Assembly (NCBI RefSeq): GCF_030694575.1
Contig: NZ_JAUYUS010000108.1
Span: 1 to 33,858, forward strand
Direction of reading: 5' to 3'
Source of the DNA: Parvibaculum sp.
GTDB taxonomy: Bacteria > Pseudomonadota > Alphaproteobacteria > Parvibaculales > Parvibaculaceae
DNA length: 33,858 nt
In this document: piece by piece, positions 23,077 through 28,764 of the stretch
Position numbering within the stretch: the stretch's first letter is position 1
Layout of the letters: each line of letters begins with the position of its first letter
Position numbers and translations under genes: made by a program
The notes under the pieces: generated by a model
Told to the model about the DNA's origin: nothing
Seen by the model: only the letters and a program-made list of their open reading frames with translations
Database searches by the model: none

Positions 23077-23631
23077 TCAGCGCGGGTGCGCGTCCCACGG
23101 CTCCAGCACGCCCGCGATGCGGCGGGGAAGGGGCATTTCCATCTGGGCGATGGCGGCGGCGGAAATTTCCTCGTGGTTGAGCCAGCGCGAGGTCTCGCCC
23201 TCGCGGACGAAGCCGAGGATCACCTGTGCGTAGACGATGTCCGGCTGGCGGCCGAGCGCCTCGGCGCGGAGCGTGGCGATGGAGGGCGCGCCGTCCTCGC
23301 CGGTGAGGAGCGAGCGGCTGCCCATGATCTCGATCAGGAGACCGCCGGGCGCCACCAGCGCGTCGAGCGCGGCGCGCAGCAGCTCCGCGCGCGGACGAAT
23401 CCAGGTGAGGGCGACGTCGAAGGGGGCGTGGGGCTCCAGCGCGGCGAGGAAGGCGGCTTCGTCGTCATAGCTTTGCGCGACGCGGACGAGCTTCGTGTCC
23501 AGCGTATCGGCGCCGAAGGAGAAGCCGTCGGCACGGCGCGAGGCGAGCACCGCCTTGTCCGAACGGGCGACGGCGTGAGCCGAAGCCGCGTTCAGCATGC
23601 CCGTGGTGCCGAGGAGGAGGGTTGTCGTCAC
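23077..23631 (-). CDS. Rossmann-fold NAD(P)-binding protein, short-chain-dehydrogenase-like
   Basis: A 184-residue protein opening with TTTLLLGTTGMLNAASAHAV, a beta strand and glycine loop typical of Rossmann-fold dinucleotide binding. Later segments are FDVALTWIRPRAELLRAAL and APGGLLIEIMGSRSLL. The C-terminal SRWLNHEEISAA is typical of a small, poorly characterised family often annotated as short-chain dehydrogenase. It lacks the YxxxK catalytic pair of classical SDRs, so enzymatic activity is doubtful. It begins 9 bases after the stop of the 11-residue-repeat protein gene, suggesting co-transcription. Confidence 0.65.
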   Translation of the reverse strand: MTTTLLLGTTGMLNAASAHAVARSDKAVLASRRADGFSFGADTLDTKLVRVAQSYDDEAAFLAALEPHAPFDVALTWIRPRAELLRAALDALVAPGGLLIEIMGSRSLLTGEDGAPSIATLRAEALGRQPDIVYAQVILGFVREGETSRWLNHEEISAAAIAQMEMPLPRRIAGVLEPWDAHPR

Positions 23632-24049: not shown

Positions 24050-24529
24050 TCAGAACATGCCTTCAGGTGGCGGTTTCTTCTTCCTTTTCCGCTCGATCAT
24101 GATGCCGGGATAGCCTTTGAGCGGGGCCAGCGGCTCGCCATTATAGGCCCAGTCGGGCATCTCCTTCAGGCCTGCGTGGTAGCGCGGTTCGCGGCCGGTG
24201 CGGGCGGCGAAGAGGGCGCGGGGGAGGTTGATGACGTGGCGGGAACGCTCGCGTTCGTAGAAGAGCGGCGTGCCGCAGCGGCGGCAGAAGCTGCGGGCGG
24301 TGCCGGGCTCTTCGTAGCGGGTGATGTCGTCTTCGCCGGCGGTGACGCGGAAGCGTTTCTTCCAGCTTCCGACCCAGCACATGGCGGCGGCGCCCGTCGT
24401 TTCGCGCGTCGCCTGCGAATGATCGTGCCAGGCCCAGAGGGCGGGAACCATGATCTCGAAGCGGACCGCGCCGCAGCGGCACTTGCCCGGTGCCCACTGG
24501 ACATGGGCGAGGGTGCGCCGCGCGGTCAC
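24050..24529 (-). CDS. GFA/CENP-V-fold protein with altered zinc site
   Basis: A 159-residue protein of the GFA (glutathione-dependent formaldehyde-activating enzyme-like) family. The structural zinc ligands are present: Cys17 and Cys19 in GKCRCGAVRF, and Cys82 and Cys85 in SFCRRCGTPLFYE. Where most members have CHCxxC for the second zinc, this one reads HDHSQATRETTG, with no cysteine until Cys51. It starts at GTG (24529), overlapping the stop of the PAP2-DUF368 gene as GTGA. The long frame upstream is shadow of that gene. Activity on glutathione adducts is doubtful given the missing cysteines. Confidence 0.8.
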   Translation of the reverse strand: MTARRTLAHVQWAPGKCRCGAVRFEIMVPALWAWHDHSQATRETTGAAAMCWVGSWKKRFRVTAGEDDITRYEEPGTARSFCRRCGTPLFYERERSRHVINLPRALFAARTGREPRYHAGLKEMPDWAYNGEPLAPLKGYPGIMIERKRKKKPPPEGMF

Positions 24530-26259
24530 GCGGCCGGCCTTTCCTCCGCCAGCCCGGCATCGTCCTTTTTCGTCAGGCGGTCGAGGAGGTAGAAGAGCGC
24601 GGCGCCGGCGACCATGCCGGCGAGGCCCATGACGAGACCGGCGTCGAAGGTTTCGGGCAGATAGGCTTCCGAGACGACCAGGCGCATCTTGCCGCCGATC
24701 TCCATGTATTCGCGGTTCTGGAACGGCCAGACGGCGAGCAGCGAACCGCCCATGAGGCCCGTCACCGCCAACATCACGGCTTGCGCGTGACGCTGCATCA
24801 GCGCGGTGACGAGGCGCGAGAGCGAGACGGCGGCGAGAAGGCCGCCCGCCGCGAAGGGCGCGAGATAGTCGAAGTCGATATGCGCGAGCGCCTCGATGGT
24901 GGCGGCATATTTGCCGAGGACCAGCAGGATGAGCGCCGCGGAGACGCCCGGCATCATCGCCGCCGTGACGGTGAGCGCGCCGCAGAGGAAGACGAACCAG
25001 ATTTCGTTCGGCGTGTCGACCGGAGTCAAAAGGGCGAAGGCGGCGCCAAAGGCAACGCCGAGCGCGAGCCAGCCCCAGGCGATGCCGTGGGGACGGTGAC
25101 GGCGCAGCAGCGCGACCGTGGCCGCGGCGAGGAGGCCGAAGAAAAGGCCGAACATGATTTCCGGCAATTCCTCGCTCAGGGTTTCGAGCGGCACGACACG
25201 GCTGAAGAAGACGATGGCGGCGGCGCTGCCCAGAAGCAGGGGCACGAGGAAGACGAGATCGGCGCGGCGAAGCGCGGAGACGAACTGGCCGCGCGCGAGA
25301 AGGCGGAGGAACTCCATGTCGAGATGCGCGATGGCGCGCATCAGGCGGCGATAGAGGCCGAGCATCAGCGCCATGCTGCCGGTGCTGGCGCCGGGCATGA
25401 GCTGGGTGGCGCCGAGGCAGATGCCGCGGAGGAACTGGCGCGCGGGATTTGGATTGTCGCTGTCTTCGCGGCCGATGCGGGCGACGATCAGCAGCCAGTA
25501 ATCCACCACGGGGTCCGAGAGGCGGCGAACGCCGCGCTGCAGGTGGTACATGGCGGGGGTGCCGAGCAGGACGCCGGCCGTCAGCAGGGTGACGAAACCG
25601 CCGCCGACCAGCGCATCCGTCATCCAGTGCGCGCCGGCCGCCATGCGCGGCAGGGCAAAGACAAAGGTGAGCGCGGCGGCGAGGAGGCCGAGGCGGCGGC
25701 CGAGACCGAGGCTCCAGGTGAGGGCGAGCAGCATCATCACCGTGGCGTGGTCGCCGGGGAAGCTCGTGTCTGAGCCTTCCTTGGCAAGCGACCAGGGAAT
25801 GTAGGCCTGGATCGAATGAACATGTTCCAGCGCGAAGGTCGGCGAGAGGCGCGGATATTCGATCAGCTCGCGCTGGAGACCGATGACGACGAGGAGGAGG
25901 ATGCCGACGGAACCGCCAAAGGCGAAGCCGTGACGGAAGCGGGGAAGATCGTCGCGGGAAATGACGATCATGTAGATGACGAGGACGATGAGCGCCGAGA
26001 CATAATCGAAGCGGCGGTCGCCCGTGAGTGCCCAGAAGGCGGCGATGACGTCGTTCATCGCGACGGTGGCGTTCAGCAGGCGGAAGATTGCGACGTCCAT
26101 CGCATCCCAAAGGGCGCGCGTCTCCGGCCAGATCCACGAGGCGGCGAGCAGGAGCGCCGCGCCCGTCCAGAGCAGAAGCCGTTTCACATTCCAGCCCGGC
26201 GTGAAAACGCCATAGGGATCGCCGCTGTGCATCGTGTTCATTCCCGTTTGGTGAATCAT
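24526..26259 (-). CDS. Fusion of PAP2 phosphatase and DUF368 (PopT-like) transporter
   Basis: A 577-residue polytopic membrane protein with two modules. Residues about 30-240 are a PAP2 phosphatase: SFPGDHA at 166-172 (BcrC-type variant of PSGH, His171) and RMAAGAHWMTD with Arg205, His211 and Asp215. Residues about 275-565 are a DUF368 domain with its two pseudo-symmetric motifs, GATQLMPGASTGSMALMLG and MMPGVSAALILLVLGKY. DUF368 proteins are reported undecaprenyl-phosphate translocases, and BcrC-type PAP2 enzymes dephosphorylate undecaprenyl pyrophosphate, so the fusion would join recycling steps. Starts at 26259, 26241 or 26232 are possible; a TATAAT lies 4 bases before the first. Confidence 0.88.
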   Translation of the reverse strand: MIHQTGMNTMHSGDPYGVFTPGWNVKRLLLWTGAALLLAASWIWPETRALWDAMDVAIFRLLNATVAMNDVIAAFWALTGDRRFDYVSALIVLVIYMIVISRDDLPRFRHGFAFGGSVGILLLVVIGLQRELIEYPRLSPTFALEHVHSIQAYIPWSLAKEGSDTSFPGDHATVMMLLALTWSLGLGRRLGLLAAALTFVFALPRMAAGAHWMTDALVGGGFVTLLTAGVLLGTPAMYHLQRGVRRLSDPVVDYWLLIVARIGREDSDNPNPARQFLRGICLGATQLMPGASTGSMALMLGLYRRLMRAIAHLDMEFLRLLARGQFVSALRRADLVFLVPLLLGSAAAIVFFSRVVPLETLSEELPEIMFGLFFGLLAAATVALLRRHRPHGIAWGWLALGVAFGAAFALLTPVDTPNEIWFVFLCGALTVTAAMMPGVSAALILLVLGKYAATIEALAHIDFDYLAPFAAGGLLAAVSLSRLVTALMQRHAQAVMLAVTGLMGGSLLAVWPFQNREYMEIGGKMRLVVSEAYLPETFDAGLVMGLAGMVAGAALFYLLDRLTKKDDAGLAEERPAA

Positions 26260-26290: not shown

Positions 26291-26400
26291 GGCTTTTCGG
26301 GGCCGGGAGCGGCCATGGCGCGCGCTTCGTAACGGATTATTGATTTGCCGTTGCACAGAGAACACTTTTGAGTTCGTCCGGTTCAACAGGGGAGGCGGCA

Positions 26401-26808
26401 ATGACCGGTTTTCTGGAAGCCTTGCAGGCGGCGAGCGAAGCGCAGGACGCCTATGTGGCGACGCTGCCGCTTTGGGTGCAGTACTGGATGTACTGGATGC
26501 TGGCCGTGCTCGGGCTCGGCAGTCTGGTGTTTTCGTTCTTCCGGGTGGAGGCGCGGTGGCTGTTGCTGTCCTTCGTGGTGACGATCGTCGCGACGATGGC
26601 GCTCGGCATGGCGGTGGGCTGGAACAAGCTCTGGGGTGTCACGCATCTCGTGCTGTGGACGCCGGTGCTCGTCTACTACATCCGGCGCTGGCCGCTGGTG
26701 GAGAAGAAGAGCGTGTTCGGCGTCTGGTTCGTGGCGGCGACGGCGACGCTGGCGGTGTCGCTGGTGTTCGATGCGAAGGATTTCGTGGAGTATCTGTTGG
26801 GGGTGTGA
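26401..26808 (+). CDS. Small multi-pass membrane protein of unknown function
   Basis: A 135-residue protein with about four hydrophobic segments (about residues 30-52, 56-78, 83-96 and 108-125) rich in Trp and Tyr, including WVQYWMYWMLAVLGLGSLVF. I do not recognise the family. The ATG at 26401 has GGAGG 5 bases upstream and is preferred over a TTG at 26368. It diverges from the PAP2-DUF368 gene and its end borders the low-GC gene, so it marks the last core-like sequence before that insertion. Confidence 0.7.
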   Translation: MTGFLEALQAASEAQDAYVATLPLWVQYWMYWMLAVLGLGSLVFSFFRVEARWLLLSFVVTIVATMALGMAVGWNKLWGVTHLVLWTPVLVYYIRRWPLVEKKSVFGVWFVAATATLAVSLVFDAKDFVEYLLGV

Positions 26809-26842: not shown

Positions 26843-28486
26843 TCAGACTTTCTGCTCCGCGAGATTTAGAGCTCTGTGGAGCATTGGGTGTATGTGAATG
26901 CGTGTATCTGTATCAACCATCTCGACGCTTACCACGGGCGTATCTTGATAGGCATAGATGAAGCGCTCTTGGGCTCCTGTCTTTATACCGATTGCGCCAA
27001 TTCGGTAGAGTTCGCAAGTTACCATTTTTGCGATTCTCAGTAGGTGAGGTATCGTCTGATTTTTCAAGTAGGCTGCGCATTCGTTGGCAATTAGATCGCA
27101 GGGCGGGCATTCAATGCCCGCTATATCGATCACCAAATCCTCTACAAAGTCCTTAGTAGAAACACTACCTAGTGTGAATCGAACGCCGTGCTTGGCAAAC
27201 TTTCGTACCGCAACTGCCAGAGACGGTAAAGCACTCCGCCATTCCTCTTCCAATGCTTGGAGCCGTATGCGCGAATATTCCCCCTCCGCTGCGCGAATGT
27301 CTCGCGCGGTCACTTGGCTATTTCCTTGAGCTTGCGTGAGGCATAAGTTTACGAAGGAAATTATGTCACGAGGGCGATAGAGGGTGCGCTCAACCATATA
27401 ATCGAATGGCTCACGTCGACCAACGTTCGTCGAGAAAACATCACCGAAGTGAATGTTTTCAGATGTATATTTTCGCCGATATAGAAAATTCACCCTCTTC
27501 TCGACCAGCTGTTTTAATTGATCTTTCTTCCACACAATCCTGAGAAAATAGTCGTCGTACTTTTCTCTTTGAAAACCTAAATCCTTAGACTCCTGAATTA
27601 CGCGTTCGAGCACGTCTGCCCTCATGGCCACGGCAATTTTTAGCGACGGAATTTTTCTGAAGGATTTTAGGCATTCGATCAGAGCGCGTATCAACGAAAA
27701 GCGTATTGATTCATCCACCCATTTTTCGTCAAGTCGATCAATGAGAATATAAAACTGCCTGAACTTATCTCCTTGGTCATATTCAGCTAGAAGATCTAGT
27801 ACTTTTGAAAGTTCTGTTAGCTGATCTGCGTTTACAATTTTTTTTGCTCGAGAAGTAACTTCGGCTCTCTTCTCAGCGCTAAGTGTTCTTGAGTAGCCAG
27901 CATTGGCCTTAAATTTTTCAACCTCTAACCCTAGCGATGCTCCAATTTGCGATTCAAGTTTTGATGTAATCTCTCGGATGTTCGTGTCCATCGTAATCCA
28001 AAATTTGTCTTCCCAATTCTCCAGATATTTAATTGCACTATTCTTTCTGTCGTTTTTAGAGAATGCTTCCCGTATGCGGCTGAAGATGCCTCGAGAGTCA
28101 TCTGCATTTTTTACACTAAATCTCATCCTGATAAATTCAATGCACAGGACATGCTTCCACAGAGCTTGAAAGAATAAATCTAGATCTATATCGAGGGCGT
28201 TTAGAAAACGGATAATGTCCGAGTTGGCTATATAATTCAGGGCCAACTCATGTAGATCGATTTTGTCTACGTGGTCTTTCTGATGTTCGACCATTCGAAT
28301 GATAGCTGTTTTGCCGGAGCCGGTGCGTCCAGATACGAGCATCTGCGGACTTGTTGTATCCAACACAGACGCGAGGGCTGGATGGTCAACAAAACAGTTG
28401 AAAAGAAATTCATCGTCGTTTTCGGCGGCAATATTGCCGATCTTTGTGTCCGGTCGAATGACTATAGGATTAGATTTTGCGTTCAT
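26843..28486 (-). CDS. P-loop ATPase resembling the Sll1717 family, low-GC acquired gene
   Basis: A 547-residue protein with Walker A GRTGSGKT at residues 53-60 and Walker B ILIDRLDE at 247-254. An AVAMRAD segment follows at 285-291. The opening (ENDDEFLFNCFVDHPALASVLD) and overall layout recall the Sll1717-type P-loop ATPases, relatives of KAP/STAND NTPases; this is recall, not a search. The C-terminal half is helical with Cys pairs (GIECPPC). The gene is much poorer in GC than its surroundings: the line from 27781 has 20 G/C in 60 bases, against 46 in 60 from 19441. The ATG at 28486 follows GGAGGGGGG. A phage-defence role is inference. Confidence 0.75.
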   Translation of the reverse strand: MNAKSNPIVIRPDTKIGNIAAENDDEFLFNCFVDHPALASVLDTTSPQMLVSGRTGSGKTAIIRMVEHQKDHVDKIDLHELALNYIANSDIIRFLNALDIDLDLFFQALWKHVLCIEFIRMRFSVKNADDSRGIFSRIREAFSKNDRKNSAIKYLENWEDKFWITMDTNIREITSKLESQIGASLGLEVEKFKANAGYSRTLSAEKRAEVTSRAKKIVNADQLTELSKVLDLLAEYDQGDKFRQFYILIDRLDEKWVDESIRFSLIRALIECLKSFRKIPSLKIAVAMRADVLERVIQESKDLGFQREKYDDYFLRIVWKKDQLKQLVEKRVNFLYRRKYTSENIHFGDVFSTNVGRREPFDYMVERTLYRPRDIISFVNLCLTQAQGNSQVTARDIRAAEGEYSRIRLQALEEEWRSALPSLAVAVRKFAKHGVRFTLGSVSTKDFVEDLVIDIAGIECPPCDLIANECAAYLKNQTIPHLLRIAKMVTCELYRIGAIGIKTGAQERFIYAYQDTPVVSVEMVDTDTRIHIHPMLHRALNLAEQKV

Positions 28487-28764
28487 AGTGTCCCCCCTCC
28501 ATACGCTTGCGCAAAATAGCACAAGACGTCCTGAATTTGGTAGGTTGAAAAACTCTGAAAGTTAGTTCGTGGACGGATATTGGGATCGATTTCTAAAATG
28601 CTTTTGGCCTCGAATAAATTCCCTGATCTCCTATTGTTTTGTAAGGAAGCCGGAAAGGGATGTATCGCGGGGCACGGGAAGATTTTTGTGGAGTATTTGA
28701 TGGGGGATGTGGGACGCGGGTATCCCCCGCTTACCCCTCCCCAAAGTTCGCGGGGCGAATTTTG

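What the first reader, a model, noticed from the sequence alone, without database searches (positions are those of the whole stretch)
24526..26259. One protein joins a BcrC-like PAP2 phosphatase to a DUF368 undecaprenyl-phosphate translocase
The N-terminal half shows PAP2 motifs (SFPGDHA and the R-x5-H-x3-D motif) and the C-terminal half has both DUF368 half-repeats (PGAS and PGVS). DUF368 proteins (PopT) are reported to return undecaprenyl phosphate to the cytoplasmic face, and BcrC-type PAP2 proteins make undecaprenyl phosphate from its pyrophosphate outside. A single chain would couple the two steps of lipid-carrier recycling. DedA-PAP2 fusions are annotated; I cannot tell whether PAP2-DUF368 fusions have been described.
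Basis: partly seen in the sequence, partly recalled or inferred. Interest (0 to 1): 0.72.

Follow-up and report, generated by a model that had tools for sequence, protein, structure and literature searches.

The report
LpxT-like phosphatase fused to lipid-carrier flippase
One membrane protein of a Parvibaculum bacterium joins an enzyme half that can make the cell-wall lipid carrier to a half related to proteins that flip that carrier back into the cell; the pairing itself was already reported, but relatives in the genus have repeatedly broken one half and kept the other, which makes the value of the pairing testable.

Summary
The minus-strand ORF 24526-26259 (577 aa) matches PF01569 at residues 147-222 and PF04018 at 282-518. 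The same fusion occurs 23 times in 16 of 27 genomes of the genus (Parvibaculum), so it is no frameshift. The architecture is not new: Sit et al. 2022 report PAP2-DUF368 proteins. Two things change the reading. (1) The PAP2 half is LpxT-like rather than YbjG-like: a profile gives E. coli LpxT 112 bits over almost its full length, YbjG 31, PgpB no hit; LpxT makes undecaprenyl phosphate and can phosphorylate lipid A. (2) The fusion duplicated. In clade B (16 genes) the DUF368 half is canonical, but 11 of 16 PAP2 halves have lost catalytic residues, probably at least three times, without shortening. In clade A (7 genes, window included) the PAP2 site is intact in 7 of 7, but the DUF368 half departs at 20 of 51 family-invariant columns. 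One-chain coupling is possible but is not what most lineages keep. The window protein is most likely a working LpxT-type enzyme carrying an altered, still constrained translocase half. New variant of a known kind.

The parts
24526..26259 (-). PAP2-DUF368 fusion gene, clade A, 577 aa plus stop
25555..26202 (-). LpxT-like PAP2 half, residues 20-235
   Evidence: PF01569; LpxT similarity; PAP2 fold of the model
25849..25872 (-). PAP2 motif 1 region, R130-x6-R137
   Evidence: alignment
25747..25764 (-). PAP2 motif 2, SFPGDH, residues 166-171
25615..25647 (-). PAP2 motif 3, R205-x5-H211-x3-D215
25447..25554 (-). junction, residues 236-271, Arg-rich helix, probably cytoplasmic
   Evidence: model secondary structure H236-262; placement inferred from its Arg residues
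24562..25446 (-). DUF368 (VCA0040-like) half, residues 272-566
   Evidence: PF04018
25384..25395 (-). first PGxS motif, PGAS 289-292; usual form is PGVS
24940..24951 (-). second PGxS motif, PGVS 437-440, followed by AAL where the canonical rows have GSF (G[SA]F)
25402..25404 (-). Q286, where 46 of 46 compared canonical sequences have D
24718..24720 (-). Q514, where 46 of 46 compared canonical sequences have K

Best explanation
The window protein descends from a fusion, found in these searches only in one alphaproteobacterial genus (Parvibaculum), of an LpxT-like PAP2 enzyme with a VCA0040-like (DUF368) undecaprenyl-phosphate translocase. Inferred ancestral working: the PAP2 site, facing the periplasm, takes phosphate from undecaprenyl-pyrophosphate (to water, or to an acceptor such as lipid A, as LpxT does), and the adjoining DUF368 half returns the undecaprenyl phosphate to the cytoplasmic leaflet. 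The fusion gene then duplicated and the copies specialised in opposite directions. Clade A (the window's copy) keeps the complete LpxT-type active site while its DUF368 half has changed around both PGxS hairpins; clade B keeps a canonical DUF368 half, and its PAP2 half lost catalytic residues probably at least three times while keeping full length and scaffold residues. So the window protein most likely works as an LpxT-type undecaprenyl-pyrophosphatase or phosphotransferase carrying an altered, still constrained DUF368 half, and the genome's second copy (contig C79) as the undecaprenyl-phosphate translocase carrying an inactive PAP2 half. Shown by computation: domains, homology, motif states, duplication, likely direction of loss, rates. 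Inferred: the biochemical activities, topology and substrate.
For: Domains. LpxT homology: profile of 15 intact halves gives 112 bits over 218 positions, YbjG 31 bits, PgpB none; LpxT blastp hits 24 of 26 fused or solo PAP2 halves and none of the frames of the 31 other PAP2 loci of the genus that were held. All 32 LpxT-like stand-alone sequences read keep H171, R205, H211 and D215 (30, 2 more), so an intact site is probably ancestral; clade A 7 of 7 intact, clade B 5 of 16 intact and 11 of 16 lacking at least one of H171, R205, H211. Intact G016 is nested among degenerate copies. PAP2/DUF368 branch-length ratio: 0.98 in clade A, 1.52 on intact B branches, 3.89 on degenerate B branches; PAP2 halves are 241-243 aa in 23 of 23. 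DUF368: 20 of 51 columns near-invariant in 46 canonical rows differ in clade A, 0 of 34 differ in the reverse test. Both halves of clade A stay under purifying selection, dN/dS 0.13-0.25 in the 6 pairs taken. PAP2-half fold: B. subtilis PgpB 5jki Z 12.1, LpxE 6ebu Z 11.1.
Against: No activity was measured. The charged residues changed in clade A are not universal in DUF368: the Latilactobacillus, Fusobacterium and Acetoanaerobium sequences lack the D, and a Halomonas one has R in place of the K (read by eye), so clade A may still transport. Degenerate PAP2 halves are still constrained (dN/dS 0.11-0.37 in three of four pairs; 0.68 in one with dS only 0.022), so they are not mere debris. Catalytic columns are not lost significantly more often than other conserved PAP2 columns (permutation p 0.18; three core residues p 0.09). 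Unrooted parsimony needs only 2 changes of state, which would mean one loss and one regain. Seven genomes, two of them under 80% complete, have only a degenerate clade B copy and no clade A partner, so the copies do not complement each other everywhere. LpxT similarity is about 30% identity and does not show acceptor specificity. Foldseek alone gave no PDB match at E 0.001 or better (best 6ebu, E 0.057), and Z values near 12 are not decisive for helical bundles.
Confidence: 0.58

Rival explanations
1. Both halves of the window protein are active and physically coupled: undecaprenyl-pyrophosphate is dephosphorylated and the product handed straight to the DUF368 half. The clade A changes in the DUF368 half would be tuning, not loss.
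For: Both Pfam domains above cut-off; PG and S of both PGxS motifs kept in 7 of 7; purifying selection on both halves; three Bacillota or Fusobacteriota DUF368 sequences also lack D286.
Against: Changes at 20 of 51 otherwise near-invariant columns; 11 of 16 sister fusions dropped the enzyme site, so coupling is dispensable in many lineages; the DedA-PAP2 fusion PA4011 could not replace the flippase PA4029 in P. aeruginosa (PMC12893004, passage).
Confidence: 0.22
2. The fusion serves lipid A chemistry: the PAP2 half is a true LpxT that phosphorylates lipid A from undecaprenyl-pyrophosphate, and the DUF368 half clears the undecaprenyl phosphate released at that site. (Compatible with the best explanation; it differs in the acceptor.)
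For: Specific LpxT kinship; purified LpxT uses C55-PP as donor and makes lipid A 1-diphosphate (PMC2229476, passages).
Against: LpxT itself also has plain C55-PP phosphatase activity that added lipid A did not enhance; acceptor use cannot be read from about 30% identity; the lipid A structure of this genus was not looked up.
Confidence: 0.3
3. The PAP2 half of clade B has become a non-catalytic partner (lipid-binding vestibule, oligomer contact or folding scaffold) of the DUF368 translocase, and the same may be its main role in all fusions.
For: Degenerate halves keep 241-243 aa, 11 of 11 keep W23, W31, W51, D55, N63, W76, P140, G191, P204, G209, W212, G233-T-P, and dN/dS stays under 1 in the 4 pairs taken.
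Against: Rates are nearly four times those of the DUF368 half, which also fits slow decay that topology alone keeps from ending in deletion.
Confidence: 0.35
4. Assembly or frameshift artefact joining two genes.
For: None found.
Against: 23 fused genes in 16 of 27 genomes, with conserved neighbours.
Confidence: 0.01

Closest known systems
PAP2-DUF368 dual-domain proteins of Sit et al. 2022 (PMC9876793, passages seen)
   Same: Same two domains in the same order in one chain; same proposed pathway.
   Different: The passage gives the architecture only; its Supplementary Table 3 was not opened, so I cannot say whether Parvibaculum is listed. The LpxT identity, the duplication and the repeated loss of the PAP2 site are not in the passages I saw.
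E. coli LpxT (lipid A phosphotransferase, PAP2 family)
   Same: 30% identity over 213 aa, SFPGDH and PRxxxGAHWxTD motifs, similar length of domain.
   Different: LpxT stands alone; here it is followed by an Arg-rich helix and a DUF368 half.
VCA0040 and PopT-type DUF368 undecaprenyl-phosphate translocases
   Same: PF04018 at 191 bits, two PGxS motifs.
   Different: Below the NCBIfam equivalog cut-offs (159 and 58 bits against 400); clade A lacks D286, K514 and the GS after the second PGxS that the 46 compared rows have (44 of 46 for the S).
DedA-PAP2 fusions such as P. aeruginosa PA4011
   Same: Candidate flippase family joined to PAP2.
   Different: Another translocase family (DedA) and the opposite order; PA4011 did not replace a flippase (passage).

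Membership tests
PF04018 (VCA0040-like / DUF368) | Pfam gathering score 26 bits | tested here: met
   191 bits, residues 282-518
PF04018 (VCA0040-like / DUF368) | NCBIfam equivalog NF052564 or NF052563, cut-off 400 bits | tested here: not met
   159.3 and 57.7 bits; so related to, but not filed as, the named transporter
PF04018 (VCA0040-like / DUF368) | Residues near-invariant in 30 Pseudomonadota and 16 clade B sequences | tested here: not met
   20 of 51 columns changed in at least one of 7 clade A rows
PF04018 (VCA0040-like / DUF368) | Undecaprenyl-phosphate translocation | not testable with these tools
   needs biochemistry or genetics
LpxT (PAP2) | PF01569 and PAP2 catalytic residues | tested here: met
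   34.2 bits over 27.2; R137, H171, R205, H211, D215 present
LpxT (PAP2) | Closer to LpxT than to YbjG or PgpB over the whole domain | tested here: met
LpxT (PAP2) | Lipid A 1-phosphotransferase activity | not testable with these tools
   biochemical
YbjG undecaprenyl-pyrophosphatase (standing for BcrC type) | NCBIfam NF008813, cut-off 229 bits | tested here: not met
   22.5 bits for the PAP2 half; BcrC itself was not compared
PAP2-DUF368 dual-domain proteins (Sit et al. 2022) | PAP2 then DUF368 in one chain | tested here: met
   architecture in print

The most novel reading that the evidence does not exclude
A bifunctional carrier-recycling fusion duplicated, and its copies underwent reciprocal specialisation: one lineage became an LpxT-type enzyme with a repurposed, non-transporting (or differently transporting) DUF368 half, the other an undecaprenyl-phosphate translocase with a pseudo-LpxT half that was inactivated at least three times yet kept as an obligate non-catalytic lipid-handling module.
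Probability: 0.33. Interest if true: 0.68.

Novelty: new variant of a known kind. Interest (0 to 1): 0.48.

Why it matters
How undecaprenyl phosphate returns to the cytoplasm, and whether phosphatase and flippase hand the lipid to each other, is open. This genus offers a natural series: fusions with both sites (5 of 23), with the enzyme site plus a divergent translocase half (7 of 23), and with only the canonical translocase half (11 of 23). Comparing them in one host would show directly what the fused PAP2 half gives to a DUF368 translocase. It also points to two charged residues that are invariant in 46 compared VCA0040-type sequences (D286, K514 in window numbering) as candidates for mutagenesis. 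Standard models hide the story: only 2 of 11 inactive PAP2 halves reach Pfam's PAP2 cut-off, and NCBIfam does not name LpxT.

Tried and rejected
Artefact of frameshift: rejected (23 fused genes). BcrC/YbjG-type PAP2: rejected in favour of LpxT type; YbjG does find 5 of the clade A halves by blastp, at E 1.6e-4 to 1e-3 over 60-78 residues. D286 and K514 as proof that the clade A half is dead: weakened, since three Bacillota or Fusobacteriota sequences lack that D and a Halomonas one has R for K. Targeted loss of catalytic residues beyond general relaxation: not significant. Mutual exclusion of DUF368 and DedA as reported in Pseudomonas: not seen, since 26 of 27 genomes of the genus have a DedA-domain match, but subfamilies were not separated. 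An operon of LpxT-like and DUF368 genes elsewhere as a source of the fusion: in the 6 sampled genomes that hold both, they lie far apart (3) or on different contigs (3, so not decided). Solved DUF368 structure: none found by sequence; Foldseek and VIA-align gave no convincing match for the DUF368 half, and that half was not folded alone, so a known fold is not excluded. The first AlphaFold model was poor (pLDDT 70.8); the second, with stand-alone DUF368 and PAP2 rows added, was better (86.6). The search for the same architecture outside Pseudomonadota was limited to one genome-contig scan whose two patterns came from the genus, plasmid records and single loci, so fusions elsewhere are not excluded; Sit et al. 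say that some exist.

Slips mended: one search took the wrong strand for L027, L029 and L030; one search reads them rightly. In one search the positions of minus-strand ORFs are in reversed coordinates and are not used; neighbours were checked again. In one search the rows named L149 and L152 are the tandem neighbours of the stated matches; the stated matches were read and keep the same residues. The frame was picked partly by the PAP2 motifs.

Full report
What is there. The finding's coordinates hold one minus-strand ORF of 577 aa. Pfam gives PAP2 (PF01569, 34.2 bits, residues 147-222) and VCA0040-like/DUF368 (PF04018, 191 bits, residues 282-518), both above their curated cut-offs. The PAP2 motifs are R130-x6-R137, SFPGDH 166-171 and R205-x5-H211-x3-D215; the DUF368 half has PGAS 289-292 and PGVS 437-440.

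Who has it. In 61 genomes (own plus 60 relatives) the fusion is found in 16, all of the same genus: 16 of 27 in the genus, 0 of 10 other members of the family, 0 of 24 other members of the class (PF04018 searched again in the 27 genus genomes, 16 of 27). Of the 19 loci of the genome-contig scan, 18 lie on contigs whose lengths equal those of genus genomes; their titles read Parvibaculum sp. (13), Rhodobiaceae (2) or Alphaproteobacteria bacterium (3). The 19th is a Cyclobacteriaceae DUF368 that matches residues 276-565 only. DUF368 is otherwise nearly absent from the class: over the cut-off in 1 of 385 sampled genomes, the own one. In a phylum sample 41 of 398 genomes have it over the cut-off, the own included. 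Of the other 40, I read 30 loci: 30 of 30 stand-alone with canonical motifs, the one 576-aa frame being an open stretch in front of an ordinary gene; the remaining 10 have frames of at most 414 aa and were not read.

Two copies. The own genome holds a second fusion on contig C79. Reading the 23 fused genes and 3 solo PAP2 genes of the genus gives two clades: A, 7 genes including the window's, and B, 16 genes; their parting is fully supported in the full-length tree (100/100), while in the PAP2 tree rooted with LpxT-like sequences clade A is not resolved as one group. Each clade has its own setting. Of 6 other clade A loci, 5 hold a homologue of the window's 146-aa ORF (26368-26808), 5 of its ORF 23077-23631 and 3 of its GFA ORF, and none of the 5 clade B loci tested holds any of them. 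The 5 of 16 clade B loci read lie behind a GH4-like gene (5 of 5) and before an MHYT-like gene (4 of 5) (names recalled, not searched). In three genomes (G010, G011, G021) a solo PAP2 gene follows the clade A gene within 100 bases.

Opposite decay. PAP2 site: complete in 7 of 7 clade A, 3 of 3 solo and 5 of 16 clade B genes; 11 of 16 clade B genes lack at least one of H171, R205, H211. The lesions differ: R205P with H171 kept (G025); H171R with R205Q or R205H (G023, G009, G005); R205P with H171 lost (G013 and the own copy); H211E (G024, G008, G010, G011, G021). Intact G016 lies among degenerate copies in both trees, and the 32 LpxT-like stand-alone sequences read all keep H171, R205, H211 and D215 (30, 2), so loss is the likely direction and at least three losses are then needed, four if lesions are counted. 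The unrooted parsimony count is 2 changes, which would need one regain. With branch lengths fitted on one topology, the degenerate B branches sum to 5.03 for PAP2 and 1.29 for DUF368 (ratio 3.89), intact B branches have ratio 1.52, clade A 0.98; all 23 PAP2 halves keep 241-243 aligned residues. In the pairs taken (17, chosen for closeness), dN/dS of degenerate PAP2 halves is 0.26, 0.11, 0.37 and 0.68 (the last with dS 0.022), of their DUF368 halves 0.09-0.15, of both clade A halves 0.13-0.25. Pfam's PAP2 model reaches its cut-off in only 2 of the 11 degenerate halves (G025, G008), and finds 2 more weakly (G024, G005); the 3 that I scanned as proteins gave no PAP2 match at E 0.01. Most such proteins would be annotated as DUF368 only.

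DUF368 half. Of 51 columns that are at least 95% one residue in 30 Pseudomonadota outgroup and 16 clade B sequences, 20 differ in at least one clade A gene; in the reverse test (34 columns invariant in outgroup plus A) 0 differ in B. Thirteen of the 20 lie around the two PGxS hairpins, which hold 27 of the 51 columns. The only two charged residues among the 51, D286 and K514, are Q in 7 of 7 clade A genes. Against reading this as death: three DUF368 sequences of Bacillota and Fusobacteriota lack that D, a Halomonas one has R for the K (read by eye), and clade A is constrained.

What the PAP2 half is. A profile of the 15 intact halves scores E. coli LpxT at 112.6 bits (218 positions; E 4e-33 for 4000 sequences), YbjG at 31.1, PgpB not at all. 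LpxT finds 24 of 26 fused or solo PAP2 halves (misses: the G011 and G021 clade B copies) and none of the frames of the 31 other PAP2 loci of the genus that were held; more PAP2 matches exist for which no locus was given. In 398 phylum genomes near full-length LpxT-like matches (E up to 1.2e-18) occur in 31 other genomes, none of the same class, all with frames of 214-327 aa, too short for the fusion; five genomes of the class show only weak matches (up to 33.8 bits). NCBIfam has no model that names LpxT: LpxT itself gets 38 bits against the YbjG model's cut-off of 229. The better AlphaFold2 model (pLDDT 86.6) aligns with PAP2-superfamily structures in the first half (B. subtilis PgpB 5jki Z 12.1, rmsd 4.3, 187 aligned; A. 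aeolicus LpxE 6ebu Z 11.1, rmsd 3.8, 162 aligned; the next unrelated row is at Z 6.2), although Foldseek alone had no match at E 0.001. LpxT is reported to dephosphorylate C55-PP and to transfer its phosphate to lipid A, with its motifs facing the periplasm (PMC2229476, passages seen).

Redundancy. BacA is found in 25 of 27 genus genomes (the two misses are 74% and 57% complete), PAP2 in 27 of 27, DedA in 26 of 27, so loss of one phosphatase or flippase should be tolerable.

What is in print. Sit et al. 2022 state that several microorganisms encode DUF368-PAP2, PAP2-DUF368 or DUF368-BacA proteins (PMC9876793, passages; Supplementary Table 3 not opened). DedA-PAP2 fusions are noted there and in PMC10127716 (passages). 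I found no paper on LpxT-DUF368 fusions, on inactive PAP2 halves of DUF368 proteins or on Parvibaculum DUF368 in the searches, which cover open PMC papers only and of which I saw listings, plus passages of five papers.

Verdict. A real fusion of a known architecture, whose enzyme half is LpxT-like, and whose evolution in one genus separates the two activities again. Activities, topology and coupling remain inferred.

Noticed in passing
window 24050-24529 (-): GFA-family ORF (PF04828, E 2e-14) whose GTG start overlaps the fusion's stop by 4 bases; homologues lie beside 3 of 6 other clade A fusions.
   Followed up: partly
window 26368-26808 (+): 146-aa membrane-like ORF, divergent from the fusion; homologues (70-77% identity) lie beside 5 of 6 other clade A fusions and none of 5 clade B loci; no Pfam match.
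   Followed up: partly
window 23077-23631 (-): 184-aa ORF without Pfam match, kept near 5 of 6 other clade A fusions.
   Followed up: partly
window 26843-28522 (-): 559-aa ORF with a P-loop-like motif (GRTGSGKT), next to the fusion locus; not searched.
   Followed up: no
L029, L030, L031: Solo intact LpxT-like PAP2 genes just downstream of the clade A fusion in three genomes, ending near the fusion's domain junction; possibly a split-off copy.
   Followed up: partly
L001 / L025 and other clade B loci: Clade B fusions sit behind a GH4-like gene (5 of 5 read) and before an MHYT-like gene (4 of 5); in the own genome a galactokinase-like ORF lies on the opposite strand beside it (names recalled).
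   Followed up: no
genomes G582, G691, G695, G735, G452, G761: LpxT-like and DUF368 genes both present, far apart in three and on different contigs in three.
   Followed up: partly
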